A DNA stretch of 64,000 nucleotides from Paracamarosporium sp. OC-R06-R3. Its lineage: Eukaryota; Ascomycota; Dothideomycetes; Pleosporales; Didymosphaeriaceae. Below the pieces are notes generated by a model that saw only the letters and a program-made list of their open reading frames with translations, ran no database searches and was not told where the DNA came from. The stretch covers positions 210,718 through 274,717 of the forward strand of contig JACVRA010000152.1 of the NCBI GenBank assembly GCA_019828545.1. The letters are read 5' to 3'. Shown piece by piece: positions 10,401-29,253 of this stretch. Within the stretch, counting starts at the first letter, position 1, and each line of letters starts with the position of its first letter. The translations under genes and the position numbers were made by a program.

Positions 10401-11587
10401 CTCGTTCAGGACCTTTCGTACATTGGAAACAGAATCGGTGCATAACTCTTGAAGAGGCACGACTTGGACAAGGCATACCAGATGAGGAGGTCCTTATAGG
10501 TAATGTCAATGACCAGTACAAGATGGTCGGCAACGCTGTCGATAGACGTGTATCTAAGCCCCTTGGACTGGAACTTCGGAGAGCTGTGGACCAACATACT
10601 CACCGAAAGGCCTATGCGAAGAGACAATCTGTATCCGTGGTCATTAATGTCAAGAGGCAGAGCCTGTTCGATGCACCAATGACTGAAAACTGCACTGATG
10701 AGATACCTGCTATGCCCGTTACATCAATCGAGGGTCAATACACTGACATGGATGACGAATCTGACAGCACTCATACAATCATTAAAGCGGATATTACGAA
10801 TTCTCCAAGGTCCACTTCCCAAGATGAGACGCACGACAACACAATATCCAAGACGTCAGTTAGCAGTCGCAGCAGATCAGAGTATTGCAGTTCAATTCTA
10901 GCAGTTGAAGAGGACGAGGAGCGCCAAACATCAACTCCCAAGGTTCGGAAGCAGTTACGCCCATCGACCAGCACCGCCATTTCGAACGATTTAACACATG
11001 ACGCTAACCTCGATGCGCAACCCGAAGCTGATTACGGACTTGACCTCAGAGTCAAGCCTGGTGGGGGCTTTAGCAGCAATGAGGAGATGGTTGATTACGA
11101 TACTTCGTCAGCTACGCCGGCGCTCGCATGGAGCCGCACCGGCTTTCTTGGAAATCTATCAAAATCTTTTACAACGGTTGCGTCATCTCGCCTATCCTCA
11201 CCAGTCACTTTACTGGATTCATCAGCTTCTCCTACAATAGGGACATCAGATTTTACGACGTCAGAGCTACCTTTACGAAACAAGCGTTCCCGAGATCAAG
11301 ATGAGGTAGATAGTGAGGGGCGTTCACGTAGCATCATCTTAGGGATATCAAATCCGCGCAAACGAGCGAAGGAATCCAGTCGAGTCGCTTCGCGAGTGAG
11401 CAAATATTCGCCTACCATTGCAGGAGATTATTCGGAGCTTGCAAGGGAAGGCGAGTCGTCCCGCAAGACTCGCCATTCGGGTTCAAATTTGGAATTTGTT
11501 CCTCAGACATGGAACAGAACGGTTGAGGATCAAATCAATGTGGATGCCAAAGCGATGAAGAATCCCCACTCTAGATCATATGCTTGA
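7414..11587 (+). CDS. dim-2: DIM-2-type DNA (cytosine-5) methyltransferase
   Basis: Exon 1 is 7414-7602; the GTAAGT intron ends at 7651 or 7654 (the two acceptors differ by one Gln codon); exon 2 runs to 11587, giving about 1373 residues, near the length of Neurospora DIM-2. An N-terminal region of about 350 residues is followed by a BAH domain (about 355-455, starting at FRVGDVISI), a second BAH-like domain (from about 505, YRQGDTVYL) and a C5-methylase domain. Motif I is LFSGLGNLDKG (about 655), the catalytic loop is GSPCPGFS with Cys at about 738, motif VI is ENV, motif VIII QNRNRL and motif X GNAVDRR (about 1022). DIM-2 makes the 5-methylcytosine that follows H3K9 methylation and HP1 at repeats. 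About 340 residues after motif X are Ser/Asp-rich and probably disordered. No inactivating change was seen. Confidence 0.93.
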
Positions 11588-13143: not shown

Positions 13144-13734
13144 GGCTCTCTAAATGTACTTATCGGTAGATGTAGCATGATTGATACATGAAAAGTAACA
13201 AGAATACAATTCAAAAGTTCTGCTACGGATCTACATTGATTGACACAACTACGATGACAGTGAACCACTCCCCCTCCAGCAAAAACCGTCGGCACATATC
13301 CATCCACAGAACATCACATCCCACGAGATCATACAGCCTTCTGCGTCGCCCACCATCATTCTTAAGCCATGTCTTCTCTTACATTCGACGTCCCTTGCTT
13401 CACATCGTGTCCGCCCTGCTGCTGAAACTCGACCATGCATTTGGGTACGTATAATTTGCATATCGCAGTCTTTCACGCATGCTGACTATTGAACAGGGAC
13501 AATCGACGGATCATGGCCTTCCCATCGACAGGAATCTGTGCAGCTCAGATCATGGGCATTCATAGGCTTGGGCAAGATCCGGCTGCGCATTTCTCACCAT
13601 CCGATCGCATTCAACGCGAGGATTTAAACCGTGTCTGGTGCTTTCTTTGCATATAGGACGCTTATCTTGCGTCTTTCAATAGATCATATAGTATCGTCAC
13701 ATCTCACAGCACGACACCATTACCGTCAAACAGA
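13144..13734. other. intergenic, 0.6 kb
   Basis: No gene called. A minus-strand 24-codon open frame around 13364-13436 has a coding look but no visible partner exon, so it is not called. Confidence 0.4.
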
Positions 13735-14172
13735 ATGGATTCTGACGAAGACCTGATGTGCCATGATGTCACACCAAGCCTACCTCTCGATGTTCCCACG
13801 CATAGCATCTACATGATACTGCAGCTTAGGATGACTGAAATAGCTCGCTGGCAACACGACGCGATCTGTTCCGTGGAAAAGGACCCGCACACCATCCACA
13901 ATGTGTACGAAAAGGTTCTTGAAGCCGACGCAAAGTTGCTAGATCTCGGCCGATGGCTACCTGCCTGGTTGAAATCTGACCTGCCAATCCATGAGGAAAA
14001 CCAACTTGCTCCATATCTACAGAACATGCGTCGCACATTCCGGATATCATTTGCACACAAACGCATTAAGATGAATCGCTCACTCTTCCGCAAAGCCATG
14101 ACGAATCGTATGTTCTACTACTCAACAATTGAGTTATCAAGAGACAAGGCTCTTGTGAGGATGAACGGCTAG
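13735..14172 (+). pseudogene. fragment of a fungal transcription factor middle-homology region
   Basis: A 145-codon open frame. The stretch around LRMTEIARWQHDAI, then LPAWLKSD and FRISFAHKRIKMNRSLFRKAM, follows the pattern of the C-terminal part of the regulatory (middle homology) region of Zn2Cys6 transcription factors, where HRPFLLR normally follows the KRI-like block. There is no zinc cluster upstream and the frame stops where the family normally continues for more than 100 residues. It could be a decayed second regulator or a truncated expressed protein. It stands 384 bases before the deaminase gene, at the edge of the amino-sugar cluster. Confidence 0.5.
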
Positions 14173-14555
14173 TCACGCGAAGATGTATCATGAAAAGGGG
14201 GCAGAACACAAAGAAGGACATAGGCTGGCACTCACCTTGTCATAATCATGACTGCTCTTTCGGGTTCTAGTCTTGCTAGTCAAGAATTAATTGTTGCACA
14301 TCGGTATTTTGCTTTATCCTGGACTGAACCCGATATGTCGGGCAGGTCGTCGGATAAGCCGCCGGACTACCAGCCACCTGCGGGAATGAACTTTGCACCC
14401 AATGAGTATCAATGATCCATCGGAAAGGTCGCCAAACATACGCAGTAGAACACGAGTCATCTCATCAATATGAAAGCCATTGCATCTCGGCTTCCTGCAA
14501 TTCAGTTCTTTCTTTAAATTAGGATGAGATTGCGTTCTAGCATTCCACATCCACC
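14173..14555. other. promoter region of the glucosamine-6-phosphate deaminase gene
   Basis: No coding region. It holds the CGG-N5-CCG site at 14351-14361 and, just before it, a small palindrome CCCGATATGTCGGG at 14328-14341. Confidence 0.5.
14351..14361. promoter_or_regulatory. CGG-N5-CCG site, one change from the cluster motif
   Basis: CGGATAAGCCG, 195 bases before the deaminase ATG. It differs at one base from CGGATAACCCG, found exactly in the other four promoter regions of this cluster. Inferred binding site of the Zn2Cys6 regulator at 15995-17933. Confidence 0.6.
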
Positions 14556-15742
14556 ATGAGACTCATTGTCCGCAACGACCCAAGCACAGCTTCTAAATAT
14601 GTTGCAGAATACATATTACACCGGATAAACCAATTCAAACTAACTCATGAGCGTCCGTTTGTCCTAGGTTTGCCCACCGGTGGCAGTCCAATCGAGGTCT
14701 ACAAATTGCTCGTCGAACGCTTCAAGGCGGGTGATGTAAGTGACGCTACGATCTCGAAATGTCGGTTTCTGACAAAAGGTCGCTACAGATATCATTCAAA
14801 AATGTAGTAACCTTCAACATGGTCAGTAGGTTGTATAGACCAGCTTTGAATGTAGACATAACGAGCATCTAGGACGAATATGTCGGCATACCGCGAGACC
14901 ATGCACAAACATATCATTCCTTCATGTGGCGTCATCTTTTCTCACACATTGATATATCCCCCGAGAATGTCCACATCCTCGATGGCAATGCCCCAGATCT
15001 CGATGCGGAATGTGCTCGATACGAAGCTGCAATCCAGCATGTTGGAGGCATCGACCTTTTCCTTGCTGGTATAGGCGAGGACGGCCATATCGCATTCAAT
15101 GAACCTGGATCTAGTCTAGCTAGCCGAACTCGAGTCAAAACTCTTGCCTACGACACAATTCTAGCAAATTCCCGTTTCTTTGGAGACGATGTCCACCAAG
15201 TACCTCGAATGGCACTCACTGTTGGCGTACAAACCGTGCTGGAAGCAAAAGAGGTGGTGACCTTGGCCTTAGGTACTCGCAAGGCTGTGGCCCTGCAGAA
15301 ATGTATAGAAGGGGCGGTGAATCATATGTGGACTCTATCTGGCCTTCAACTACATCAGCATTCGATGATAGTGGCTGACGAGGATGCCACGCTTGAGCTG
15401 CAGGTGAAAACCGTGAAGGTAGATTCTGGTTGCCCTTCAATACACGACACATCGAGTTGACATTTTCACTAGTACTTTAAGTCGATTGAGAACATCGCTC
15501 GCCAGCAGGGATTCGAGTATACATTGCCCAGAGGCCTTCTAACCGAGAAGGAAGATGTGAAACTCGATGATCATGTGGTTCAGGAGAGAATTGTCTCACT
15601 TCCGAACTCAAAGCCTGATCTGTCTGACGCTTCTTTGCTACGGCCAGATGGTCCTGTTAATGCACCGCTATCGATTCGGCCACTCACTCCTGAGCCCACA
15701 CTGGATAACATGGGTTCTCGCGTCACCTCAACTAGATCATGA
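14556..15742 (+). CDS. nagB: glucosamine-6-phosphate deaminase
   Basis: Four exons, 14556-14735, 14789-14821 (only 33 bases), 14873-15418 and 15473-15742, giving 342 residues. It converts glucosamine-6-phosphate to fructose-6-phosphate and ammonia in the cytosol, the last step of amino-sugar breakdown. Splicing produces LPTGGSP near the start, FNMDEYVG with Asp72, and [15 protein letters not shown] with Asp141, His143 and Glu148, which fall at the same positions as the E. coli catalytic residues. The C-terminal 75 residues after the enzyme core are extra and low in complexity, as in other fungal homologues. Its 3' end converges on the regulator gene with 252 bases between. It completes the MurQ-NagA route encoded further on. 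Confidence 0.95.
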
Positions 15743-15994
15743 TGCTAGAGCGGCGATCAGAGAGGCATAGGAAAAGAGAGCGAAAACGCTGTATCATAAT
15801 GATGTTTGGAACCAATAATCATATTTGGGCTCTTTAACAGTATGTTATACAGGTTAAATAGCGAGGTTATGCTGCACTATAGACGAAAATGTAAACTACC
15901 TTACCCCTTAGTAACTATCAAGTATCAGGAAGAGCGCAGTATCGGTTCTTGAACCCTCTAGAGTCTATTGTTTGTTTGGTTATCCACATGAATC

Positions 15995-17933
15995 CTATGA
16001 TATCTCTTCTTCAACACCATCTTGTACACCATAGTCTCGAGATCCACTAGGACTTTCCAACAAAATAGCTGACGTAGCAAGATTGTACGGCCAACCACCA
16101 GAGAGTTGCAGCCAGATAGATTGAATATCTATAAATCTTGCAGATGTATCGCCTGTAGCAAATTTGATAGAAGCCTGTAAGTGTGGAAGAGAGATAAGTG
16201 AAGGGTAGCCATCTCCAGGCTGAGGGCGGAACTCATCTGTCGAATCGCCGTCGGGTAGGGTTGAGCCTGGGCTAATCATGGCCTCGCGTATTTCACCAAG
16301 GTAAGCTGCCTTGTAGAGGGCCTGCATAACATTAAGAGCCATTAACCATTGCTTGGCGGCCTTCCACTCAGATAGCCATGACGTGAAGTGCTGCTCGATC
16401 AGGTCTAAATAAACTCTGGCTCTCTCTTGGAATTCATTGCTTGAGTAGAATTCATCTTGCGCATGTTGGAGCCACAGGAAAGTGTTTGCGACAATTAGAA
16501 GCGAGGCAGCAACCCAGATATTTTGCAATGAACTTTGAACTTTCCCCTGCTTTCGTTCAAAGTCCGTCAGGCATGAAAGCATATCTCCAAGCTCTAATGC
16601 ATTAGAGACGCAGATTTCTATAAGTGACTGCTCTCGGTGTAGGTAGGGCCAACCGGCACCGTCTATAGCATCACATAGTTGTGTATAAATAGCCAAATGA
16701 GGAAGATAACACTGGTGAGCGACACAACCAGCACTGCGAAGCAGAAAGTGCATGGCTACGAATGACCTTCCCGTTCCAAGATCACATTGAATCTGGAAAT
16801 TGGGAATACTCCATCGAAGGTTAGGGTGTAGTGAGCTAGTCCACGCATCAAGGGCACTGGACCGATGAGAGAATACGCTTCGGGAGTCAGTTGGTATGAA
16901 CTTGTCCAGATTCCTTCGCGAATAAACGGCGAAGTCAGCGAGATCGCTCCACAGGCAGATAGTCCTAATGAGATAGGGACCCAGGCCCAAATCTGACGGA
17001 CGTTGATAGAACAAGAGATCATGCAGGCCCACACCTCGAGTCTCCTCGTGATATATCAATGAGATGTCTGTGCCGGGAAGCGGTATGCCAACATTCTCAA
17101 GATCAATAGTGCGGTGTTTAGCGAGGAAGTAGGCCAGCGCTCTGTCAAATACTAAACAAGCCCAAAGGATGCGCCTACGCACTTCCTGTTCCCTGAGATT
17201 GTGTTTTTTATGAAAGTCCTTGTTCAGGCGCATGATCTCAGCCATTCGTATGGCTGTGCCTGCGAACATCCAATGTCGGGAGCCCGAGTTGGAGACAAGC
17301 TCGGCGTGTGCAAGCACAAGGTTTGCTTGTATGTGAGTAACTAGACAATCGTGTCAGCGAGGTGAACATGGCTAGTAGCGGTGGAGTTTACCGGTCGGTT
17401 GATCCGACGATGCCTTCGCAAGGGATCGAGCCACCTGCAGGTAATGGGTGGATACCTCAGAACCCGACGGAAGTCGGAACAGGTCGTATGCCTTATCGGC
17501 GTCTAGATATCGGCCGCTGAGAGCGATAATGGAGGATGCAAGGAAAGTATTCTGTATGCATTTTTCTTCGAAGCTCGGGCGGTGGTCAAAGGAGCAAAAG
17601 TCACTAGCAAAGTGACGATCCAAAAAAAGACTCAAACATGCTTTGATCCCTTCTGGGCCATACTCGGGAAGCTGCACATCGACGACAGGCTCAGGCGAGG
17701 CCGTGCTGGTGGTTTGAAAGCTGTCTGGCATGGACCAGACGCAGGCGATGTTTCTGTTGGCGCACCGTTTGCACCGAGGGCGCACACCATCGCACTTCGA
17801 CTTACGTCGACGACTGATCCCGTCCACAGACGTTAGTGTGCATCTTTCTACAGTGTAGAGAAAGATCGCCTAGATTGGGATGAACATACCATGCGTCGCA
17901 TGCCTGTGGGGTCCTCACAAACGTTCGAGGCAT
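15995..17933 (-). CDS. Zn2Cys6 transcription factor of the amino-sugar cluster
   Basis: Exons (minus strand) 17933-17890, 17813-17392 and 17340-15995, 603 residues. The zinc cluster is split by the first intron and is perfect once joined: Cys12, 15, 22, 29, 32 and 39 in the C-x2-C-x6-C-x6-C-x2-C-x6-C spacing. A middle homology region follows (about residues 90-450), with the typical WMFAGTAIRMAEIMRL and RRRILWACLVFDRALAYF blocks. Such proteins bind CGG triplets as dimers in promoters. The gene is divergent from the amidase-like gene and lies within the cluster whose promoters share CGG-N5-CCG, so I infer it is the pathway regulator and may control itself (a site lies 122 bases before its ATG). 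The inducer is unknown. Confidence 0.9.
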
Positions 17934-17970
17934 GCTGTCGATGCAAAATTGGTGGGCATGCAAGTCTGGA

Positions 17971-17981
17971 CGGGAGACCCG
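17971..17981. promoter_or_regulatory. CGG-N5-CCG site with different spacer
   Basis: CGGGAGACCCG, 38 bases before the regulator ATG. It keeps the two CGG half sites and the 5-base gap but not the ATAAC spacer. It may be a weaker site or chance. Confidence 0.35.
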
Positions 17982-18054
17982 ATGGGCCTTTGGAAAGTCC
18001 GGGGTTCAGTCGACCTATCTAGCAAATAGCGCTTATCGGAAGACTTCCTTGGGT

Positions 18055-18065
18055 CGGGTTATCCG
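18055..18065. promoter_or_regulatory. exact cluster motif between regulator and amidase-like gene
   Basis: CGGGTTATCCG, the exact reverse complement of CGGATAACCCG. It lies 122 bases before the regulator start and 386 bases before the amidase-like gene start, in their shared 517-base divergent promoter (17934-18450). Confidence 0.65.
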
Positions 18066-18450
18066 GCCGCAAGCCCCGCAAAAATAGGCGTAGCGGCTAA
18101 TCCATGCAAGTGCCTTCATCTCATAACAGTCTAAACTAGAGTAAGGCCGTCGATGCTTTCCCCACTACTGTGAAGTCTGGTGAATGTTTGATTCGGGGCC
18201 GCATCCTTGCCATTGTACTGGCAACGTACAAGAATCATCACCCAGGTTTATCTAAAGCTTATCGAAAAGTGATAGGGTTGAGATGCATGCGGGTTATGTT
18301 TTCCCCACGAATGTTGCTAGTGCTATCGCGTCTCGAAGCATGCTATTTCATTATATATCACTATATCTCAGTCTCTCTTCGTCCTAATGCTTCATTGAGC
18401 AATTCAACTTTTCTCGGCATCAAAGTCATTCGTACCCAATTCTCCTCGCT

Positions 18451-19737
18451 ATGAAATTTCAACTCTCTGCCACAGCTGTCTTTACGGTCATAGCATTTCC
18501 GGCATCTGCAGACTATGTGCTCCGGCGTGGGAGTCCTTCGGCGGTCGGGATGCTATCCCAGCCACTGATATCTATGGTTCAAAACCTCTCATCGTATAAC
18601 ACTCCGGCCGACTACGGGACCGCGTCCCACAACGAGATACGGGCGCTCGAACCCGGGTCAGCCAATCTCGTAGCTCGCCATGGAGTCATCGTGAGCGCTT
18701 TTGCTGTGGGAAAGAGGAAGCTATATGCCGATGCCAATGGTACTTATCTCGATGCAGCGGAGCAGGAAGAGACAACCCTTGACACCATCTATGACCTTGC
18801 CAGTATCTCAAAACTCTTCACTTCTATTGCTGTACTTCGGGAAGTGGATAATGGACGAATTCACCTCAATCAAACCGTGGCATCGTACCTACCCGAGTTT
18901 GCGGCCAATGGAAAGGACGACATAAGGGTGATCGACCTACTTACCCACAGTAGCGGTCTCTTGCCTTTGCCCATCCCTGATCTCTGGAAGTCGAATTATT
19001 CATCAATAGATGAACGGATCGCGACATTGCTTAATCTGGCTCCTCAAGAGCCGCGACGCACTAAATTTATTTACTCTGACATTGGCTTCATGACACTCCG
19101 CTACCTGTTAGAACAAGTAACAGGGATGAACCATGAGCTGCTTGTCTATTCTTTCACCATTCCACTGGGCATGAGATCAACCTTTTTCAATCGTGGCAGC
19201 CTCGAGGGTCCCCGCAACCCGTTTTATCACCGTACTGCACCGACCGAATTCGAAATAGAGGCACAAGGACCAGAGGAGCCAAAACGCCCGCAACCAGTCC
19301 GAGGAACTGTTCATGACGAAAATACATGGGCTCTAGGAGGTGTCTCTGGTCATGCGGGTCTGTTTTCCACGGTTGAAGATGTTGCTATCTTCTGCCAAAT
19401 GATCCTGAACAATGGAACATACAAGGGCCATCGGGTGCTGTCAAAAAAATCCGTGGATCTCATCTTCACCGATTTCAACGGGCAATTTCCTGGTAATAAT
19501 TACGGAGCAGGGTTTGCGCTCAACCAAACCTACACGCAGGGCAGTATGCAGAGCATGCAAACCGCAAGTCATTCTGGTTTCACCGGCACCACCCTTGCAA
19601 TCGATCGGCCTTCTGGCACATTCTGGCTCCATTTTAGTAACCGTGTGCATCCGAGTAGGCATTGGTCAACGAATAACCCTGCTCGCGAGGCAATGGGCTA
19701 TTGGGTGGCGAAGAGTCTTGGGAGGAAGGTGGATTAA
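18451..19737 (+). CDS. secreted serine hydrolase of the beta-lactamase/PBP family, AmiE-like
   Basis: Single exon, 428 residues, with a signal peptide (hydrophobic residues 5-19, likely cut after ASA20). The class C beta-lactamase/DD-peptidase catalytic set is present: SxxK as Ser118-Ile-Ser-Lys121, the YxN equivalent Tyr208-Ser-Asp210, and His374-Ser-Gly in place of KTG. The blocks HSSGLLPLP, VHDENTWALGGVSGHAGLFST and HSGFTGT resemble the PF00144 hydrolases that sit beside murQ in bacteria, such as Bacillus subtilis AmiE (YbbE), which removes the peptide from MurNAc. I infer an extracellular enzyme that strips stem peptides from muropeptides before uptake; an esterase or DD-peptidase is possible. 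It is divergent from the regulator. The lack of introns, unlike the rest of the cluster, is notable. Confidence 0.82.
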   Translation: MKFQLSATAVFTVIAFPASADYVLRRGSPSAVGMLSQPLISMVQNLSSYNTPADYGTASHNEIRALEPGSANLVARHGVIVSAFAVGKRKLYADANGTYLDAAEQEETTLDTIYDLASISKLFTSIAVLREVDNGRIHLNQTVASYLPEFAANGKDDIRVIDLLTHSSGLLPLPIPDLWKSNYSSIDERIATLLNLAPQEPRRTKFIYSDIGFMTLRYLLEQVTGMNHELLVYSFTIPLGMRSTFFNRGSLEGPRNPFYHRTAPTEFEIEAQGPEEPKRPQPVRGTVHDENTWALGGVSGHAGLFSTVEDVAIFCQMILNNGTYKGHRVLSKKSVDLIFTDFNGQFPGNNYGAGFALNQTYTQGSMQSMQTASHSGFTGTTLAIDRPSGTFWLHFSNRVHPSRHWSTNNPAREAMGYWVAKSLGRKVD

Positions 19738-20048
19738 TCTTTGTAGGTTCTTTTATAAAAGTGTCTCCACAGAGGATCAATGTAAAGTCTTGCACTTTTA
19801 TTGACAAGCCGTCGACAGTGGCTATGTAATTTGGTAGAATGGTTGTGTGTTAATAGTAGGGGTAGTATCACCACAGCGTATGGGCAAAGAATATTAGCTA
19901 CCTTGATTTAACTTGGACGTTTCAATCAAAAAGGCATATTTATTTTGATACTTCGAAATATGCTACATGACATTATAAGAACGAGCTTCTTTCTCACTTA
20001 TCGTAGGCCCGTCTAGCTACTAAATGCACTACAGCGATAGGATGATGC

Positions 20049-20064
20049 TACAGCGGTACTACAG
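20049..20064 (+). repeat. 16-bp direct repeat, copy 1
   Basis: TACAGCGGTACTACAG; the identical 16 bases recur at 20405-20420. A related word, CTACAGCGATAG, lies just upstream at about 20028. Confidence 0.8.
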
Positions 20065-20404
20065 CTTCGTCAGGCTGTCCCCAGAGACTCCGCGTGTTAA
20101 CATAGCTGAGGCTCTTGCCGCGATAGTTTTGGAAGGGTATTAGGAACGACATTCGAAGTTGTCTGTGGAGGTGTCTGTGGAAGGATTGCAAGGCTCTGCA
20201 GCCTGCATGAAATATTCGACTACCACCTTACCTGTTGAGCCATGACTCCTCACTATTCTCACCAAACCATACTTTTGCAATGACTCCCAGAGTCGTTGTC
20301 TCCTATAATCTCAACAGCTTAGTAAAGGTATAGCACTCAGTGCGCAGCTCTGCTGTGGTACTGACTCACTAGGGTCCCACGCTGGGCCAACACCAACTCG
20401 ATCG

Positions 20405-20420
20405 TACAGCGGTACTACAG
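20405..20420 (+). repeat. 16-bp direct repeat, copy 2
   Basis: Identical to 20049-20064. No target duplication or element boundary was recognised around either copy. Confidence 0.8.
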
Positions 20421-20812
20421 GATTGCATGTGCAATTATCTGGACAGGAGCGTGGAATGCATTCCTTAGGCTAGAGTCTCTTTTACTGACAGATCTTGACA
20501 GTCAGAAGAGTGACCATCTAAAGTCTTATCAAGACTTATCCAGAACCAATCTAGGGCTTGGGGTAGCCTACGATAGCAAATCCTAAATCAATATTTCTCC
20601 AGCCGTCTAGTACATGAACTAGTAATTCAAAGCGCGGGTACTTTAACGAAATGTTTCAATTGATTCCGTATTAACTTTCTGTTAGATCTAATCTATGCAG
20701 GGTCTCGTGATACTACTGCTATGTCCTACAGACATGTGTATCACGCGAAGTGATATTATACTTGAAGGGGACCAGGAATGTGATATATGGATCAGGAGGC
20801 TTCACAATGAAT

Positions 20813-22851
20813 TCAACCAAAAGCCTTTTGTTCTTGTTTTCTCTTCTCCTGCAATTCGAAGCCTTCATCTTTAGCTTCGGCATCCATATCAGACCTAAGG
20901 GGATCCAGTCGGGATGTATTCCTATCCTGCCACCAAACGACACAGATCCAAGCAGCAAGACTGACTGATACAACAACCATAGCGATGGTGCCCTTTCGAA
21001 AACCCTAAGAGCCCAAGTCAGCATCTTAGAGTGGGTACTAATCAATATATAACCTACGGTAGCGGCGTCGTTGACCGGATAAAGTGTGATACCCCAAAAC
21101 GAAAAGAGGACGGAAGAAGCACCTATACAGTCTCAGTATGTCCCAGTGTTTACAGAAGGTATAATTACCATTCATGGAATAGAGAATCACAGCTCTCGAA
21201 GCGTCGTCTCCATTTCGGGCTAGGATTTTGTTCGCCCAGGTGAACACAACGGGCTGAATCAGGTAAGCAGTTCCGGCAAGATCTTTTCTGGTCAGCTATA
21301 TGTCGCATAGATACGAACGCGATCGGACATCTCACAAAAAGCAGCCATCTTAGCTTGTGTACCAACGAAGTCCCAGCAAAGAAGAACAGTGCAGGTGATG
21401 ATCTGAACACCACAAGCGAAAATGCCGTACGGAGCATGGACTCCGGTGGCATCAATTGCCACAGAAGTGCACAACGTGAGAACAATACCTAAAAAATAGG
21501 ATTAGAATCGTTCTAGACTCTTTCTCGATCGAAATACGAACCTATAGCGGTTATTCCTAATGGATAGGTGTTATTTTGCGGAACAGTGAATAAACCAGAA
21601 GCCTTCATCCAGAGAACCATGCAAGTCTGAGTTGAATAAGCCTCGAGTGCTCCCCCGAGCATCCAGAATATGGTAAAGATCCAGCTTCAAAGAACCGTCA
21701 GCATGAGTTCAAAGCATTCTTTTAAGACGTACAAATTAGCCGTGAAAAGGACTCTCCTAATGATTGAGGTGCCAATCTTGTGTCCATCAGGGCTTTTAGG
21801 TGGCAAGCGACTCAAAGCAAGCTCACGTTCGTTTTCCTTCAGATAGAAGGCTTTTGTCGTTTCAGGTAAATCGGGGAAAAATAGAAATCCAAAAACCGCA
21901 ACAGGAAGGGTAACGATGCCGTCGATTATAAAAGACTGGGGTTGTTCAATCAGCAGGCAAATTTGTGCAGGATTGTATTAAGAACCTTACCCATCTCCAA
22001 CCTGGGAGGCCAGAAACGCCATCCATCGTCTTCCAAATTGCTGTCATCAAAATACCTGGGAGCTAAGATCAGAGACACGCTATAAGACGGCCACGAATAA
22101 CGTACCAGCGAACATGGTCCCAACCATTCCTGAAGCCTGAAAAAGACCAACCCGCTTCCCGACCTCGGGCCCTTTGTACCAACTTCCGATGATGTATTGC
22201 GTGCCGCTATATGTGGATGCTTCGGCAATGCCCTGGAAGAAGCGTACTGGTGCAAGCTGGGCGAAGCTGTGGCAGGCACCACATGCCATAGTCAGGAGAG
22301 CCCAGACAAGCGTCATCAAAGGAAACCAGATGCGAGGAGCTACCTTTTGGATGACAAGGCCGTGGGGCACCTGACCAACAATATCTAGTAACGGTCAGTG
22401 TCTTTTCAAGGCCCCCGGTTGAATCATAATAGCATCCTACATCCAACTGCCAGGCAAGTGACCAGAAGGTTGTACTGGTCACCTGTAATATTTATATCCT
22501 CTTTCATTCCAGATACATAAGCGTTTCCAAGAACGGCGCGGTCTGCGTTGTTAAGTAGATGACTTTTGTCAGTTCGAGGTCAGGCTACTAACCGAGGTAG
22601 TTGAAGAAAAAAGCGACACAGCAATATGTCTTGAAAACAATCAGAAATCCGACTGATCACGCATCAATGGGCGCACCGTGTGATATGGGGCATACCAGTA
22701 TAAAAAAATCAATCTTTCGCAACAGCTAGATGAGATGTCAGTTAGCGATTCTCAGCGAGATTCATATGCTTTCGCCCACCTTTCGCTCTTCGGGGGAATC
22801 GGGGGCTTCACCCCAGACTGCATTGCGCAGCTGGTGAAGTTTGATACCCAT
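20813..22851 (-). CDS. MFS transporter, anion:cation symporter family (Fen2/Liz1-like)
   Basis: Twelve exons on the minus strand: 22851-22780, 22725-22696, 22629-22593, 22542-22441, 22384-22106, 22055-21991, 21935-21733, 21684-21542, 21488-21336, 21282-21169, 21122-21057 and 21003-20813. All phases match and give 484 residues. Motifs of the allantoate/pantothenate permease group are clear: NYLDRAVLGNAYVSGM in the first helix, then GQVPHGL, RFFQGIAEAS and SWYKGPEVGKRVGLF. These plasma-membrane proteins import organic anions with protons. Because MurNAc carries a lactyl carboxylate, and the gene is divergent from murQ with two CGG-N5-CCG sites between, I infer that it imports MurNAc, anhydro-MurNAc or a similar product. 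Substrate unproven. The acceptor of intron 9 (AAAAG at 21283) was chosen because nearer ones break the frame. Confidence 0.85.
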
Positions 22852-23238
22852 GCTGGTCAAGAGGACGACTACTCTTAAAGGATAAAGTTCAACAGCCCTG
22901 AATAGCTTACAGTAACAACTTCAATTTGTCGGATGAGAATGCAACAAGATGTTCCAAGTTCTCATTTGTAGTGACTGCGCGGGGTTTTAAAGAAGTTCAG
23001 ATGTAAAGTAAGACGTCACGTCTGGGGAACACCCCTATTCAACCCCGCTCCAAAACCGTATCTTCTGTGGGGAATCGGATCTCTTCTTGGCATGTATATC
23101 GGTAAGATATCTGAGAACAGATTAATCAGTCTTCCTGCCGTAGATAGCGATTCGAAAGCTGATATTCTCAACTTAATTTTAGCTCCACTGAGTCATGCAA
23201 TTCGGGCCGCGTGATGTAACCAATACGGTTGGCGCAGT

Positions 23239-23249
23239 CGGGGTATCCG
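23239..23249. promoter_or_regulatory. CGG-N5-CCG site, one change from cluster motif
   Basis: CGGGGTATCCG, one base from the reverse complement of the cluster motif, 22 bases before an exact copy in the divergent transporter/murQ promoter region. Confidence 0.55.
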
Positions 23250-23270
23250 CCCTTGTCCTTTGTCGAACGG

Positions 23271-23281
23271 CGGATAACCCG
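23271..23281. promoter_or_regulatory. exact cluster motif, transporter/murQ promoter
   Basis: CGGATAACCCG, 420 bases before the transporter start and 287 before the murQ start. With the site at 23239 it forms a close pair in the 716-base gap 22852-23567, which has no other recognisable content. Confidence 0.65.
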
Positions 23282-23567
23282 ATTTTGATCTTCCAAGAAT
23301 TGCTTCCTCGCAGAATAGGATCGGATGGTGTTTGAGGCTCATTGGATGAATGCATTCACGAATTTTGCGGGTCATGCAAATTCGGGATCGGATTGCGGGA
23401 AAACACTCCATCGACGATTGCCTACGCGGACCACTTGAGTCAGACATCCACGACAGAATTCTAGTTGGTCCTACCGTACCATCAAGGTTTCTACAATCTT
23501 CATTACTGTCATCGAGAAGAATTTCCCAAGGAGTTTTTGCGGCACTGCCATTTCACCCATCTTCAAC

Positions 23568-24894
23568 ATGTCACCTGCGGCCCTCTACGAGTCGTCACCC
23601 TCTATCCAAACACATCAATTCGCTGGCTTTGGGTCCGATGGTGCCAAAACAGGAGAAAATATTACCATAGGCGCCAACTCCAACGAGAGCACTGGGCTGT
23701 CCTCTGAGTCCCTCGCTGGCCTTCAAACGGAGCAAAAGAATTCGAGAACAGCAAACATAGATTCAATGTCTTCATTAGAATTCTGTCGTAAGGACTATGG
23801 AAGCGTGTGGTTATATAGATATCTAACAGAGAATCAGAAGTCATGAATGAAGAAGATGCCAGCGTTGCGCAGGCAGTTAAGACTTGCTTACCGCAGATTG
23901 CAGCGGCTATTGATATCATTGTGCCTCGACTTTTGGTTGGTGGACGGGTGATATATACAGGAGCTGGCACAAGTGGGCGGTGCGTTGGTAAACTCCAGCA
24001 ATTTAAGGATGTTAGATTACTAATTCATTCGTAGGCTGGGGATTCTAGACGCATCAGAAATGTGAGGCCACTCAACTGCGTTTATGTATCTCACCCAGCT
24101 GATCAAATGCAGTCCTCCAACGTTTTCAGCCCCAGTAGGCCAGTTTGTCGGCTTAATTGCTGGAGGAGACTCTGCTATTCGCAACGCCGTCGAAGGCGCC
24201 GAAGATTCAGAGACAATGGGCGCATCCGACCTCGCGAGTTTATCACCACCTATCAACAAAGACGACGCCCTGATAGGTATTGCATCTTCAGGGAGGACGC
24301 CTTATGTGCTGGGTAGCTTGAAACATGCTCGCTCAGTGGGAGCTGCAACAATAGGATTGGCTTGTGTCCAGCCAAGCTCACTCCGAAGCTCTTGTGATAT
24401 CTCAATCGAGTGTGTTACTGGGCCTGAGGTAGTGACAGGGAGTACTCGTCTCAAAGCGGGGACTGCAACGAAGATGGTTAGTTCTACAATGCAAATTTAT
24501 ATGCTCACTTGTTGTGGCTCACAAGACTATCCAGATTCTGAATATGATTTCGACCGGGTCTCAAATACAGACAGGAAAAACATATGGAAACCTAGTGAGC
24601 AACGTACCGAAATGTAATGTTCTTATCTAATTTTAGCAGATGGTTGACTTGCAAATGTCTAACCGGAAACTCCAAGATAGGGCACGCCGCGTTGTGCGCA
24701 TGGTGGTACCACCATCGTCAGCCCTTGATATTGAGAGCGAAGAGGTCCTAGATTCTGTGCTTATGGATTGCGATGGCCAGGTTAAATTAAGCATTCTGGT
24801 GGCGACCCTGGGTTGCTCTCCAGCGCAAGGGAAGGCGCTATTGGATGCTTCGTCGGCCTCGCTAAGACATGCCTTAGCAGGAAGATGCGGGTAG
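23568..24894 (+). CDS. murQ: N-acetylmuramic acid 6-phosphate etherase (MurQ family)
   Basis: Six exons, 23568-23787, 23838-23979, 24035-24061 (27 bases), 24113-24476, 24535-24594 and 24640-24894, giving 355 residues. MurQ cleaves the lactyl ether of MurNAc-6-P to GlcNAc-6-P and D-lactate. The SIS-domain blocks are intact: TEQKNSRT, IYTGAGTSGRLGILDASE, GLIAGGDSAI, and the C-terminal small helical domain containing DGQVKLSILVATLG. The two acid residues important in E. coli (Glu83 and Glu114, 31 apart) correspond to Glu129 and Glu160, also 31 apart. It is much shorter than animal glucokinase regulatory protein, which is a two-SIS relative, so it is an etherase-type protein. About 48 residues at the N-terminus are extra. 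Five introns argue that it is long resident in fungi and not bacterial contamination. Confidence 0.93.
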
Positions 24895-25434
24895 TCAGGT
24901 CAATACTTTGCTATTCGACTACATTGTACACAGAATTTGTTCATCCGTTGCCGTACACTATGGTCCTTATTTCTTGCGAAACTTCTTTCCTGCACATAGA
25001 ACCTTTCTAATTCAGCGGTCGCCCACACTAATGTCCACTTTCTATCGTTATATCCCTCGGTCAAAGGACACAACGTCTTAGTCTTGGCACTACGTTCAGA
25101 GCATTGAAATCCGCACAGCAACCCTCTTCTTGCTAATACAAAATCTTTGATAGTTTACTATCGTTGACTAAAATCTACTAAGTTTCAGAAAGAATGGTCC
25201 TATGATTTCCAGAACTTACGTACTTGTCCTAGAGAAGAATTCTAGGTATATACAGTTCAGAGAAGCCTGCTGTAAGGCTTAGGGCTGTGAAATTATTTTG
25301 AAGAACATGTCCGCGTAAGCAACAGAGACAAGCGCCAAGAGCTACAAGCCGCGCAGGCACTAGGTAACGCCACTAGTAGTTTTTCGTTCGAATTGAGCAG
25401 GGCCACTAAGCAGGCCCTAAGGCTTTCCGCACGG

Positions 25435-25445
25435 CGGATAACCCG
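25435..25445. promoter_or_regulatory. exact cluster motif, anmK promoter
   Basis: CGGATAACCCG, 236 bases before the anmK ATG. The 786-base gap 24895-25680 around it holds no gene that I can see. Confidence 0.65.
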
Positions 25446-25680
25446 TGAATTACCCCATCCATTCTTATCGCAACCCGCGTCTTTTAACATAGCAATAGAG
25501 TCTTTCCTCATGGATCAGGATTAGTACTCAGACACCAGGATATCTATAGCTATCGGTGGGCAAAGCCGACGTAGCATGTTCCTAGTCAGGAATTTGGCCA
25601 TCTTAAAGGCGACGCGATCGCGTTGATAAGACAAAGACAAAATTACAGATTCAGCCTGGACGCTAGACTTGATTGTCATT

Positions 25681-27156
25681 ATGGTGACTCTCAATGTTCT
25701 CGGGCTTAACTGCGGCACCAGCATCGACGGTATGTGTGCTGCCATAGGCATTCCACCGTAATGCTGTGACAGTGTCCTCACAACATGGCATTCCGCTCAC
25801 AAACACTTAGGTGTCGATGTTGCGCACTGCCGTATAACCTCTAATACATCTTCAGCTGATGTAAACATTGAGGTCCTAGCATATGCCGAAGTCCCAGTCG
25901 ATCCTAGGCTACGGTCACAAGTCCTGCGTCTATGTCGTCCAAATCAAGAAAGTGCTGCAACCTCTATGGCTGAGGTTTGCGACCTGAACTTCGCTCTTGG
26001 AAGAGAGTTTGTACGTGCTATACTGGAGTCAGGCATCGACCTAGCTGCAGTCGATATTGTTAGTAGTCATGGACAGACACTCTGGCATAATCCATTTGGG
26101 GAACATCGCTCCACTCTCCAATTGGCTGAACCCGCCGTAATTGCTCAAAGGACGGGACGGTACTATATTCAATGTCTGAGGTCTGTTTTGCGTGAGCTAA
26201 TAGAAAATGCAGAACCGTCATCAGTGGTTTTCGGGTTGCTGAACTGGCTGCCGGGCGGCAAGGGGCTCCTTTGTCAGGCTTCTTTGAGGCTGCACTGCTC
26301 ACCGACTCACACGTCACCCGGATCGTCCAGAATATTGGTGGAATAGGTACGTTGAATTTTTCGAGACACAAAAGATGCCGCTATTGATAAAATCGCCTTA
26401 TAAACAGGTAATGCGACCGTCCTACCAGCCTTGAACTCTTCAAGGCCCCAAGAACCGCAACCAACATATCTGGCTTTCGACACCGGTCCTGGAAACGTTC
26501 TAATAGATGCTACAATGCGTATCATAACCAAGGGAAAGCAGCACTACGACCACGACGGCCTTCTCGGTGCCAGAGGCGAGGCAGACATAGACGAGTCGGT
26601 TATCAACAATTACCTAGCTAGCGAGCCCTACTTCAGATTGAACCCACCTAAGACCACAGGACGCGAGCTGTTCTCTGACGATGTTGCTAAGCAACTAGTC
26701 GACAAATTGAAGGCTACAGGGAAAACCCCAGAGGCAATTGTTGCGACAGTCACACGTATAACGGCAGAATCAATCGCCAGAGCATACAACCAATTCGTTT
26801 TACCACGTCTAGGAGAGAAAGGGAAAATCGACGAGATTTACATATGCGGCGGTGGAGCATACAATCCTAATATCCTAAAGCATTTACAGAGATGCTTTCC
26901 AGAAAGTCGAGTGTTGAAGCTCGATGACGCGCCCGTGAAAATCGATCCCAGTGCAAAGGAGGCAGTCTTGTTTGCATTGCTAGGCTTTCTTGGGGTTTGT
27001 GGGCGCACGGTACCTATCGCGGCGGACTCGGAGACTCAGGATCCTGCTATTTTGGGCGTGATCACTCCCGGCGCAAACTACCATGAGGTTATGAGAAGAG
27101 TGGTCAATGATACGGAATTCTCTGGCAAAAGGGTTCTCGGACGCGTTGTTATATAG
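25681..27156 (+). CDS. anmK: 1,6-anhydro-N-acetylmuramic acid kinase (AnmK family)
   Basis: Four exons, 25681-25729, 25811-26159, 26213-26346 and 26408-27156, 426 residues (bacterial AnmK about 370). AnmK opens the anhydro ring of anhMurNAc and phosphorylates it with ATP to MurNAc-6-P, the substrate of MurQ. The sugar-kinase fold motifs are present: GLNCGTSIDGVDVA at the start (exons 1-2 joined), SSHGQTLWH, RVAELAAGRQGAPL, NIGGIGN (exons 3-4 joined), FDTGPGN and, near the end, ICGGGAYNP. All splice phases agree and no defect is seen. It lies between murQ and nagA, all three on the plus strand. No separate MurNAc kinase is present nearby, so the cluster seems built for the anhydro form. Confidence 0.93.
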
Positions 27157-27500
27157 GGGTCGCAAATTGTTCGTATGTGGTGTGTTGATTTTGTTCTGTC
27201 AATTACGATACACATTTCAATTCTACCTTGAATTGCATTCCAAACGTAGTCGCTGGATACACGGTCTAAATTCATATTGATCTTCAAACGGAATCCGATC
27301 GACTCGCTACACTATAGCAATCAATTTGACAATTACGGCGGACGATTTGTGCTCATGGAAAAATCATCCATTCCCCGCATCTTTCCTTATCATCTTCTGA
27401 TAATCGTGGCGGTTTCTTCTAAGATTCACATGGGCTAGAATAAACGGGAAATCCGATGGCATGAGTATTCCTGAGAAGACGAAACTGATACCAGTATGTG

Positions 27501-27511
27501 CGGATAACCCG
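27501..27511. promoter_or_regulatory. exact cluster motif, nagA promoter
   Basis: CGGATAACCCG, 318 bases before the nagA ATG, in the 672-base gap 27157-27828, where I see no other gene. Confidence 0.65.
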
Positions 27512-27828
27512 CCAACCCGAGCGCCGAAAGCTATGTCTCAATAGGCAATATTCCGCCCCAGATCGGTACATCAAGACTATCTGTGATTTGGACACGCTTG
27601 AAGTATTTTCAGCTGCGGTGAACGAAACCACTGGTGCTTTTAAAGTTAGGCAGGGTGTTCATTGTATCGTGTCTCCGTTCTCTTATTACAGACTACCAAG
27701 TACTAGAAACTGCCCTCACTATTTAAAGGGAGACACCTTGTTTTACCAAAGATACCCCAGGTATCCAACAAAGAATCTACCTGGCCGCGCCTGTTTTGGT
27801 TTTGTTTCATATACTGATCGAATTAGCA

Positions 27829-29253
27829 ATGCCTACTGTTGCCTGCTCCAGCGGCATTACCAAGTTCACGAATTGCCGACTTGTCCGAGATGGGGAATTC
27901 GCATATGAGGATCTCTGGATAAGCTCAATCACTGGCACTATTCTATCTGGTCAAGCAACCTTTTTTGATACTGGAAGTCTTCCCGATCAAGTTATTGACC
28001 TCGGAGGACGCATCGTCTCTCCTGGCATGATCGACGTACAACTAAACGGAGCATTCGGCTTCAACTTCTCGACATTGATGGAAGATATCAAAGAATATCC
28101 ACATGCCGTGGCGGATGTAAATAAGAAGTTGGTTTCTATTGGGGTCACATCGTATGTTCCGACTTTGACTAGCCAGACGCCAAATCTTTATCAGACGGTG
28201 AGAGAATCACGACATACACTGCAGCTCGAATACAGCTGATAATCGATGCTAGGTGCTACCTCACCTTCGCCCAAGCGGCACAAGGTCTGCTTATGATGGT
28301 GCAGAATCGCTTGGGGCACATGTTGAAGGTCCTTTTCTAAATCCAAGCAAGAACGGAATCCACAATGCAAGCGTGCTTCAGCAAGCAAGAAGCCTCCAGG
28401 ATCTTGAAGCATGTTACGGTGCAGAGAATTTAGGCGCTCTAGAACGACCGAGCACCTACACAGGATCTATTAAGAAAATAACTCTTGCTCCAGAATGCGG
28501 TAACATGACTCAGATCATTCCAGAACTGACATCCCGAGGGATTGTCTGCTCAATAGGTCACTCTGAAGCCACTTACGAGGAGGCATCGAATGCTGTCGCT
28601 GCAGGAGCCACAATGATCACACACATGTTCAACGCGATGAGGCCGCTACATCACCGTAACCCAGGAATCTTTGGGGTTCTCGGAATCACTGCTGAGGCCC
28701 TTCCGAAACCTTACTTCGGCATCATTGCTGATGGCGTTCACCTCCACCCTACTGCTGTCAACATCGCTTTCAACACGCATCCCGATGGTCTCATCCTAGT
28801 CACAGATGCTATGCATCTGGTGGGACTTCCCGATGGTGTATATACATGGACCAACGGTGACATAGAGAGCAGGATTGTTAAAGTCGGGCCGACTTTACTT
28901 CTTGATGGAACAGACAAGATCGCGGGAAGGTTAGTACCTCATCTATTGATCAAAAACTACTGCTAATATATATACCTCAAAGTTCTATCACTCTGATCGA
29001 ATGTGTAAACAATTTCCTGCAGTGGTCCAACACTTCGATCAGCAAGGCGCTTAAGGCAGTTACTGCTACACCTGCAGCTATGCTAGGCATCCAGAATAAC
29101 AAAGGAAATTTAAACATAGGCGCTGATGCCGACCTGGTCATTTTCTCTGAGGAGAGAACAAACGATGGCAAAATCCAGTTGGTAATTGACGAAGTGTGGA
29201 AGTTTGGTACCCAAGTTTATGCACGAGAAGGAATAAAAGAATATAAAGGGTAA
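27829..29253 (+). CDS. nagA: N-acetylglucosamine-6-phosphate deacetylase
   Basis: Exons 27829-28197, 28253-28929 and 28983-29253, 438 residues. It removes acetate from GlcNAc-6-P to give GlcN-6-P, linking MurQ to the deaminase at 14556. The amidohydrolase metal and active-site residues are present: HVEGPF with His146 and Glu148, GHSEAT with His226, THMFNAMRPL with His247, and VTDAM with Asp308. Other family features are SPGMIDVQLNGAFG near the start and ATPAAMLGI plus GADADLVIF at the end. An in-frame ATG exists 33 bases upstream at 27796, but 27829 gives the usual N-terminus. It is the last recognisable gene of the cluster. Confidence 0.95.

What the first reader, a model, noticed from the sequence alone, without database searches (positions are those of the whole stretch)
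14173..29253. A complete fungal gene cluster for catabolism of bacterial muramic acid
Seen: intact, mostly intron-bearing genes for MurQ (etherase), AnmK (anhydro-MurNAc kinase), NagA (deacetylase), NagB (deaminase), an MFS organic-anion symporter, a secreted AmiE-like serine hydrolase and a Zn2Cys6 regulator lie together with nothing else between. Known: in bacteria AnmK, MurQ, NagA and NagB convert anhMurNAc to fructose-6-phosphate, and AmiE removes the stem peptide. Fungi have no muramic acid of their own. Inference: this fungus feeds on bacterial peptidoglycan fragments with a dedicated regulon. I do not know a description of such a cluster in fungi, but could not search.
Basis: partly seen in the sequence, partly recalled or inferred. 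Interest (0 to 1): 0.96.

Follow-up and report, generated by a model that had tools for sequence, protein, structure and literature searches.

The report
Fungal cluster for bacterial muramic acid
A fungus carries an intact, apparently co-regulated set of seven genes that looks built to take up and burn muramic acid, a sugar that bacteria make for their cell walls; no such fungal gene cluster turned up in the papers searched.

Summary
Seven intact genes (NagB, Zn2Cys6 regulator, PF00144 hydrolase, MFS transporter, MurQ, AnmK, NagA; 6 of 7 with introns) lie at 14556-29253 in a 43-Mb fungal genome. The strongest rival was that 'AnmK' is a levoglucosan kinase (LGK), its best PDB match. It fails: the genome has a separate LGK-type gene; the window protein falls outside the LGK clade; it keeps AnmK-type His109/Gln120 where all 17 LGK rows have Leu/Thr; and relatives share a contig with MurQ in 8 other fungi. 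The hydrolase resembles YfeW, encoded beside murQ-murP in E. coli. New here: an 11-bp CGG-N5-CCG motif, CGGATAACCCG, exact or with one mismatch, stands in all five promoter regions and nowhere else in the window; 4 of the genome's 10 exact copies are here, and a count that names no motif finds it too (0 of 500 shuffles). Best reading: a catabolic regulon for 1,6-anhydro-MurNAc from bacterial wall turnover, ending in fructose-6-phosphate. Enzyme activity, transport, regulator binding and expression are inferred. Ten searches of an open-licence library listed no description of such a fungal cluster; one 2026 paper calls murQ transfer potentially unique to ants.

The parts
14556..15742 (+). NagB, glucosamine-6-phosphate deaminase, 342 aa; exons 14556-14735, 14789-14821, 14873-15418, 15473-15742
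   Evidence: model; TIGR00502 389.5 bits over cut-off 236.9
15995..17933 (-). Zn2Cys6 transcription factor, 603 aa; exons 17933-17890, 17813-17392, 17340-15995
   Evidence: model; PF00172 and PF04082 over cut-off
18451..19737 (+). PF00144 serine hydrolase resembling YfeW, 428 aa, intronless; N-terminal signal-like segment seen by eye
   Evidence: best NCBIfam PBP4B/YfeW, below its cut-off; 30% identity to E. coli YfeW over almost the full length with the VHDE...GVSGHAGLFS stretch; the only match to this protein in the genome at E 1e-6
20813..22851 (-). MFS transporter, 484 aa, 12 exons
   Evidence: PF07690; nearest solved structure a D-galactonate transporter, weak (33 bits)
23568..24894 (+). 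MurQ, MurNAc-6-phosphate etherase, 355 aa; exons 23568-23787, 23838-23979, 24035-24061, 24113-24476, 24535-24594, 24640-24894
   Evidence: model; TIGR00274 344.2 bits over cut-off 302 (on the 358-aa version); 45% identity to E. coli MurQ with E83 and E114 conserved; only strong MurQ match in the genome
25681..27156 (+). AnmK-type anhydrosugar kinase, 426 aa; exons 25681-25729, 25811-26159, 26213-26346, 26408-27156
   Evidence: model; PF03702 246.5 bits; tree and signature residues
27829..29253 (+). NagA, GlcNAc-6-phosphate deacetylase, 438 aa; exons 27829-28197, 28253-28929, 28983-29253
   Evidence: TIGR00221 244.1 bits over cut-off 225.65
14351..14361 (+). promoter motif, 1 mismatch (CGGATAAGCCG), about 200 bp upstream of NagB
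18055..18065 (-). promoter motif CGGATAACCCG between the divergent regulator and hydrolase genes
23239..23249 (-). promoter motif, 1 mismatch (CGGATACCCCG), between the divergent MFS and MurQ genes
23271..23281 (+). promoter motif CGGATAACCCG between the divergent MFS and MurQ genes
25435..25445 (+). promoter motif CGGATAACCCG, about 241 bp upstream of AnmK
27501..27511 (+). promoter motif CGGATAACCCG, about 323 bp upstream of NagA

Best explanation
A dedicated, inducible fungal regulon for feeding on bacterial peptidoglycan turnover products, with 1,6-anhydro-N-acetylmuramic acid as the key sugar. Proposed route. (1) The YfeW-like hydrolase, which carries a signal-like N-terminus, removes the stem peptide outside the cell (inferred). 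(2) The MFS permease imports the sugar acid (inferred). (3) AnmK opens and phosphorylates anhMurNAc to MurNAc-6-P. (4) MurQ splits this to GlcNAc-6-P and D-lactate. (5) NagA and NagB give GlcN-6-P, then fructose-6-P and ammonium. Steps 3-5 are inferred from family membership and conserved residues. The Zn2Cys6 regulator is inferred to bind the CGG-N5-CCG motif that stands in every promoter region of the cluster; that the motif is shared is shown, the binding and the inducibility are not.
For: Intact genes and families. Motif within one mismatch 6 times in the window, all 6 in the cluster's 5 promoter regions (shuffle mean 0.58, 0 of 100 shuffles reach 6); 4 of the genome's 10 exact copies are here; without naming a motif, 8 8-mers are shared by at least 4 of the 5 regions, all pieces of it, against a shuffle mean of 0.056 (0 of 500 reach 8). 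AnmK lies outside the LGK clade and shares H109/Q120 with bacterial AnmK; a separate LGK-type gene exists at C89. AnmK and MurQ relatives share a contig, judged by equal contig length, in 8 other fungi, with consecutive locus tags in 3, and are joined in 2 gene models; the hydrolase is on that contig in 3 of the 8. Of 80 bacterial AnmK loci, 35 have MurQ, 20 a relative of the hydrolase and 15 both nearby. E. coli has murR-murQ-murP-yfeW. A GlcNAc-type gene set lies separately on C18, so a further NagA/NagB pair in this cluster fits a distinct substrate.
Against: No activity, transport, growth or expression data. AnmK's best PDB match is LGK, 351 vs 156 bits for bacterial AnmK; it misses all 14 NCBIfam AnmK cut-offs; 9 columns set all fungi, LGK included, apart from bacteria (e.g. 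R148 for G in all 69 bacterial rows) and 6 set the fungal AnmK-type rows apart from both others. The hydrolase misses the PBP4B cut-off, 156 vs 385 bits. The MFS match to a solved sugar-acid transporter is weak, 33 bits. The motif was seen by eye in these promoters, so those figures are after the fact (one search names no motif). In Mariannaea AnmK and MurQ lie on contigs of different length. NagA and NagB relatives are rarely near bacterial AnmK: 3 and 1 of 80 loci. The genome has no PF01464 match, so no own source of anhydro ends was found.
Confidence: 0.82

Rival explanations
1. The kinase is a levoglucosan kinase: the cluster phosphorylates 1,6-anhydroglucose or another anhydrosugar, and MurQ is there for another reason.
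For: Best solved relative is Lipomyces starkeyi LGK, 351 bits. One fungal enzyme labelled AnmK (R. toruloides) has clear levoglucosan kinase activity, 10.65 vs 1.25 U/mg for empty vector (PMC9476349, one section read); its clade was not tested here.
Against: The same genome has an LGK-type gene with 687 bits to 4YH5. The window protein lies outside the LGK clade (support 100) and keeps H109/Q120 where all 17 LGK rows carry L/T. Relatives share a contig with MurQ in 8 other fungi. The low readings of S. stipitis and M. guilliermondii enzymes in PMC9476349 (2.98 and 1.76 U/mg) do not help, since the known LGKs of L. starkeyi and K. imperatae read just as low there (1.67 and 1.78).
Confidence: 0.06
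2. The pathway works but its purpose is sensing, competition or detoxification: clearing muropeptides or responding to bacteria rather than feeding.
For: The PF00144 superfamily includes beta-lactamases; the genome also has two GH25 lysozyme-type genes.
Against: The route runs on to fructose-6-P through its own NagA and NagB, which a clearing function would not need.
Confidence: 0.08
3. An ordinary amino-sugar (GlcNAc or chitin) cluster in which MurQ and AnmK are passengers.
For: NagA and NagB are shared with GlcNAc catabolism.
Against: A GlcNAc-type set is elsewhere: C18 has NagA, GH3, a hexokinase domain and NagB, much as in T. reesei (PMC4950302, passages). This cluster has no hexokinase among its seven genes, and the AnmK and MurQ promoters carry the same motif as those of NagA and NagB.
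Confidence: 0.03
4. Silent relic of transfer: intact frames but not expressed.
For: No expression data were available.
Against: Open frames, introns, conserved catalytic residues, shared promoter motif and close relatives in other fungi.
Confidence: 0.01

Closest known systems
Bacterial MurNAc/muropeptide catabolism: E. coli murR-murQ-murP-yfeW; B. subtilis murQ-murR-murP-amiE-nagZ-ybbC
   Same: MurQ etherase in one gene group with a wall-active hydrolase, a transporter and a regulator; the window hydrolase resembles YfeW
   Different: Eukaryotic genes with introns and separate promoters; AnmK and an MFS permease in place of the MurP PTS; Zn2Cys6 regulator in place of MurR; own NagA and NagB in the cluster
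Chloroflexota muropeptide loci, e.g. Ktedonobacter NamZ-AnmK-MurQ-GH3 (L024)
   Same: AnmK-MurQ adjacency and the best bacterial AnmK match to the window among those fetched, 44%
   Different: NamZ and a GH3 in the locus, ABC transporter genes by eye; no NagA or NagB match in it
Fungal GlcNAc catabolic cluster with RON1 (Trichoderma reesei, PMC4950302, passages)
   Same: NagA and NagB functions; clustered, regulated amino-sugar catabolism
   Different: Zn2Cys6 factor rather than an Ndt80-like one, and no hexokinase or GH3 among the seven genes here; MurQ, AnmK and the hydrolase added; a GlcNAc-type set exists separately on C18
Fungal levoglucosan kinase (Lipomyces starkeyi, 4YH5)
   Same: PF03702 family and fungal sister clade
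   Different: Signature residues, clade and MurQ linkage
murQ transferred to Camponotini ants (PMC13320244, passages)
   Same: murQ in a eukaryote
   Different: There a single gene from Mollicutes, read by its authors as defence; here a seven-gene catabolic cluster with AnmK

Membership tests
MurQ etherase (TIGR00274) | score over curated equivalog cut-off | tested here: met
   344.2 vs 302 bits (358-aa version)
MurQ etherase (TIGR00274) | catalytic glutamates (E. coli E83 and E114; their role is recalled) | tested here: met
   both conserved, 45% identity
MurQ etherase (TIGR00274) | cleaves MurNAc-6-P to GlcNAc-6-P and D-lactate | not testable with these tools
   needs an enzyme assay
AnmK | PF03702 domain over full length | tested here: met
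   246.5 vs 24 bits, profile positions 3-366 of 367
AnmK | NCBIfam AnmK equivalog cut-offs (models built for prokaryotic genomes) | tested here: not met
   0 of 14 reached, best 350.5 vs 387 bits; so it is filed as an AnmK-type PF03702 kinase of a fungal clade, not as an NCBIfam equivalog
AnmK | residues that separate AnmK from LGK (H109, Q120) | tested here: met
   bacteria 68 of 69 H and 68 of 69 Q; 21 fungal AnmK-type rows H 100%, Q 95%; LGK rows 17 of 17 L and T; their part in binding the sugar is inferred from position
Levoglucosan kinase | inside the LGK clade | tested here: not met
   17 LGK rows form one clade (100) without the window
YfeW/AmiE-type muropeptide hydrolase | PF00144 with SxxK and the VHD...GHAGLF stretch of YfeW | tested here: met
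   the stretch as a subfamily mark is my own reading; AmiE itself was not compared
YfeW/AmiE-type muropeptide hydrolase | NCBIfam PBP4B (NF002968) cut-off | tested here: not met
   156.3 vs 385 bits, yet best family by about 96 bits
YfeW/AmiE-type muropeptide hydrolase | MurNAc-L-Ala amidase activity | not testable with these tools
   needs an assay
NagA (TIGR00221) and NagB (TIGR00502) | equivalog cut-offs | tested here: met
   244.1 vs 225.65 and 389.5 vs 236.9 bits
Fungal GlcNAc cluster (RON1 type) | Ndt80-like factor, hexokinase and GlcNAc transporter with NagA and NagB | tested here: not met
   Zn2Cys6 factor and no hexokinase among the seven genes; a GlcNAc-type set lies on C18, where an Ndt80-like factor and transporter were not confirmed

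The most novel reading that the evidence does not exclude
Fungi hold a dedicated, self-contained regulon for living on bacterial wall debris, specific for 1,6-anhydro-MurNAc. It was built from genes taken from bacteria (AnmK nearest to Chloroflexota among those sampled), was rewired under a fungal Zn2Cys6 switch with its own promoter motif, and recurs in part across ascomycetes and in at least one basidiomycete. Fungal levoglucosan kinase is the sister branch of this fungal AnmK and may have arisen from such an enzyme by loss of the muramic-acid signature residues.
Probability: 0.6. Interest if true: 0.93.

Novelty: new variant of a known kind. Interest (0 to 1): 0.89.

Why it matters
Muramic acid is used in soil science as a marker of bacterial residue, and fungal attack on bacterial walls is mostly discussed as defence (both recalled). 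A fungal pathway that carries the sugar to fructose-6-phosphate would make bacterial necromass a direct fungal food, link fungal carbon and nitrogen budgets to bacterial turnover, and hand geneticists a small regulon with a named motif and candidate regulator. It would also correct a recent statement that murQ transfer is potentially unique to Camponotini ants (PMC13320244, passages), warn that several fungal proteins named anhydro-MurNAc kinase in databases belong to the levoglucosan kinase clade (names, clade), and suggest how one enzyme specificity may have come from another.

Tried and rejected
Rejected: (a) AnmK as levoglucosan kinase. (b) MurQ as a glucokinase-regulator-like protein: it exceeds the MurQ equivalog cut-off and matches GKRP chains far less well in the PDB, 69 vs 265 bits. 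(c) Bacterial contamination: introns in 6 of 7 genes on a 274.7-kb contig. (d) A wider regulon by exact sites: the 6 exact motif copies elsewhere (L117-L122) all fall inside open frames, 5 of them in frames of 456 aa or more, and none of the 3-kb loci showed a wall-degrading gene by eye (no family search was run on them). (e) Own makers of anhydro ends or a PF01869 kinase: no PF01464, PF01869 or PF07075 match.

Led nowhere: the AnmK and LGK structure papers are not held, nor is a MurNAc etherase review, so contacts of H109 and Q120 with the sugar could not be checked. DNA of the fungal relatives was not available, so whether the motif is conserved there is untested. No structure was predicted (not tried). 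A pattern for the hydrolase stretch was first too strict (12 of 20 bacterial rows and 2 of 8 fungal relatives; 18 of 120 listed relatives); loosened, it fits 18 of 20 bacterial rows and 120 of 120 listed relatives. My note says 13 of 20; 12 is right. The F. lateritium relative P0244 lacks the DxASxxK pattern. Rows dropped: of 80 bacterial AnmK loci, 11 left out of the tree for stops or odd length; the Talaromyces row P0013 left out of the residue counts; 2 of 35 bacterial MurQ rows left out as short.
Full report
What is there. The window lies in contig C41 (274.7 kb) of a 43.1-Mb genome in 337 contigs, for which no relatives are held. I rebuilt seven genes by hand from GT-AG introns and homology. 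All frames are open. MurQ, NagA and NagB exceed NCBIfam equivalog cut-offs. MurQ is 45% identical to E. coli MurQ, and E83 and E114 of the E. coli enzyme (catalytic by recall) are conserved. It is the only strong MurQ match in the genome; one further weak match at C53 has 23 bits. The hydrolase query finds only itself in the genome at E 1e-6.

A shared promoter motif. While reading the sequence I saw GCGGATAACCCG recur. The 11-mer CGGATAACCCG occurs 6 times in the window with at most one mismatch, all between 14351 and 27511 and all in the five intergenic regions upstream of the seven genes (shuffles: mean 0.58, largest 3, 0 of 100 reach 6). Positions: about 200 bp before NagB; in the divergent regulator-hydrolase region; twice in the divergent MFS-MurQ region; 241 bp before AnmK; 323 bp before NagA. 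It has the form CGG-N5-CCG, as Zn2Cys6 factors often bind (recalled). Because the motif was picked by eye from these promoters, I also counted all 8-mers in the five regions without naming any: 8 are shared by at least four of the five, all pieces of this motif, against a mean of 0.056 and a maximum of 2 in 500 dinucleotide shuffles. Genome-wide there are 10 exact copies against 9 for the reversed control pattern, so the motif is not common in general, yet 4 of the 10 lie here. The other 6 all fall inside open frames, 5 of them in frames of 456 aa or more. The binomial figure of 2e-12 printed is after the fact and should not be taken at face value.

AnmK or levoglucosan kinase. The best solved relative of the window kinase is the Lipomyces starkeyi levoglucosan kinase, 351 bits, against 156 for P. 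aeruginosa AnmK. This was the most serious rival. Four results speak against it. First, the genome has matches to PF03702 at two further places: C89 is an LGK-type gene with 687 bits to 4YH5; C85 is divergent and lacks the SHGQT motif in its frame (by eye). Second, in a tree of 109 proteins (window, 22 fungal AnmK-type, 17 fungal LGK-type, 69 bacterial) the LGK rows form one clade (SH-aLRT 100) and the window sits outside it with the AnmK-type rows (window and 21 of them at 99; with all 22, only 89). Third, at 12 columns bacteria and the fungal AnmK-type rows agree against LGK, among them H109 and Q120 close to the SHGQT motif: 68 of 69 bacterial rows have H and 68 of 69 Q; 21 fungal AnmK-type rows have H 100% and Q 95%; all 17 LGK rows have L and T. 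Against that, 9 columns are shared by all fungi against bacteria, such as R148 (G in all 69 bacterial rows), and 6 by bacteria and LGK against the fungal AnmK-type rows. Fourth, gene linkage, next.

The cluster in other fungi. Relatives of AnmK and MurQ lie on the same contig, judged by equal length of the longest contig, in 8 fungi: Fusarium nematophilum (tags ACJ41O_013622/013621), F. oligoseptatum (CEP52_004235/004236), F. lateritium (ACHAPJ_006654/006655), Dactylonectria macrodidyma, Penicillium riverlandense, Cephalotrichum gorgonifer, Clonostachys rosea IK726 and Naematelia encephala, a basidiomycete. Two gene models join both domains (F. decemcellulare, Paramyrothecium foliicola). In Mariannaea the contigs differ in length; in F. 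falciforme and Purpureocillium lilacinum the listed proteins come from different assemblies and cannot be compared. The hydrolase is on the same contig in 3 of the 8 (F. nematophilum ACJ41O_013618, F. lateritium ACHAPJ_006653, Dactylonectria); in P. riverlandense the listed relative is on another contig. NagA, NagB, MFS and regulator were not searched in other fungi, so the whole cluster is shown only in this genome.

Bacterial context. For the first 30 of these genomes the hydrolase query has 140 matches in about 171 Mb, so about 0.26 would be expected in the 322 kb of those 30 loci, against 7 loci seen; the two searches used different thresholds, so this is rough. The best locus, Ktedonobacter (44%), reads NamZ-AnmK-MurQ-GH3. 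E. coli K-12 has murR-murQ-murP-yfeW, B. subtilis murQ-murR-murP-amiE-nagZ-ybbC (PMC5061867, passages). The window hydrolase is 30% identical to YfeW over nearly its whole length and shares the VHD...GHAGLF stretch with 18 of 20 linked bacterial homologues under a loose pattern, 12 of 20 under a strict one. B. subtilis AmiE is described as a MurNAc-L-alanine amidase acting outside the cell; that it belongs with YfeW is recalled, not tested. A peptide-removing role is the natural guess; a DD-carboxypeptidase or esterase role is open.

Origins. In the MurQ tree (70 rows) all 27 fungal rows and the window form one group at 100; in the AnmK tree all 40 fungal rows, LGK included, do so at 99. Roots are by midpoint and bacteria were sampled as best matches, so a single early gain from bacteria fits but is not proved. 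The window's NagA is closest among own paralogues compared to the C18 gene (56% and 49% in two pieces) and its NagB to an apparently intronless C79 gene (62%); so these two may be fungal paralogues drawn into the cluster.

Which sugar. The genome has no match to the PF01869 kinases, to SLT lytic transglycosylases or to NamZ; it has two GH25 lysozyme-type genes and, in the GlcNAc-type region of C18, a GH3 with a GNAT domain, a family that the T. reesei paper likens to bacterial NagZ (PMC4950302, passages). AnmK acts on the anhydro sugar, which in bacteria arises from lytic transglycosylases (PMC5061867, passages). The simplest reading is that the fungus takes anhydromuropeptides shed by bacteria. 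Whether a fungal hexokinase could phosphorylate plain MurNAc is untested. Other fungi carry MurQ joined to a PF01869 kinase (P0164 A. fumigatus, P0167 P. angulare, P0172 Beauveria), which would suit plain MurNAc.

Literature. Ten searches listed no description of a muramic-acid catabolic cluster in fungi; five of them found more papers than were listed, and the library holds open-licence PMC papers only. A Monascus genome paper names one gene as murQ in a chitin pathway (PMC9159588, passage). An ant genome paper of April 2026 states that murQ transfer had not been reported and is potentially unique to Camponotini (PMC13320244, passages). The T. reesei GlcNAc cluster paper has no occurrence of 'muramic' or 'peptidoglycan' in its main text (PMC4950302, find). 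The levoglucosan kinase comparison was seen in passages and one section (PMC9476349). A review notes fungal GH25 lysozymes (PMC6272156, passages). A 2010 survey of prokaryotic genes in fungi (Marcet-Houben and Gabaldon) I know by recall and by citation only; I did not read it, and it may mention some of these genes.

Verdict. Observation confirmed; interpretation supported and strengthened by the promoter motif, the AnmK/LGK separation, the YfeW likeness and partial recurrence in other fungi. The pathway kind is known from bacteria; a regulated fungal version is the new part.

Noticed in passing
G000 C89:118111-119268 (L001): A separate levoglucosan-kinase-type gene; several fungal proteins of this clade are named anhydro-MurNAc kinase in databases.
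   Followed up: yes
G000 C85:474492-475508 (L003): A third, divergent PF03702 gene whose frame lacks the SHGQT motif; possibly a changed or inactive enzyme.
   Followed up: no
proteins P0164, P0167, P0172: Fungal MurQ joined to a PF01869 kinase in Aspergillus, Penicillium and Beauveria: a likely second fungal route, for plain MurNAc.
   Followed up: partly
L037, L046, L050: AnmK and MurQ in one open frame in three Chloroflexota loci; fungal gene models P0006 and P0027 join them in the opposite order.
   Followed up: partly
L049: By eye, a GH3 and a GNAT-like stretch lie in one frame with the YfeW-like domain, but masked bases lie between; the fungal C18 GH3 also has a GNAT domain.
   Followed up: no
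G000 C79:177000-186900 (L127): An apparently intronless NagB (62% to the window's) beside a hexokinase gene: a third glucosamine-related locus.
   Followed up: partly
window 7652-11587: A 1311-aa open frame that reads by eye like a cytosine DNA methyltransferase; no family search was completed on it (the only call that held it, 73, failed).
   Followed up: no
window 13657-14172: A 171-aa open frame left of NagB that reads by eye like a fragment of a fungal transcription factor; no Pfam match.
   Followed up: partly
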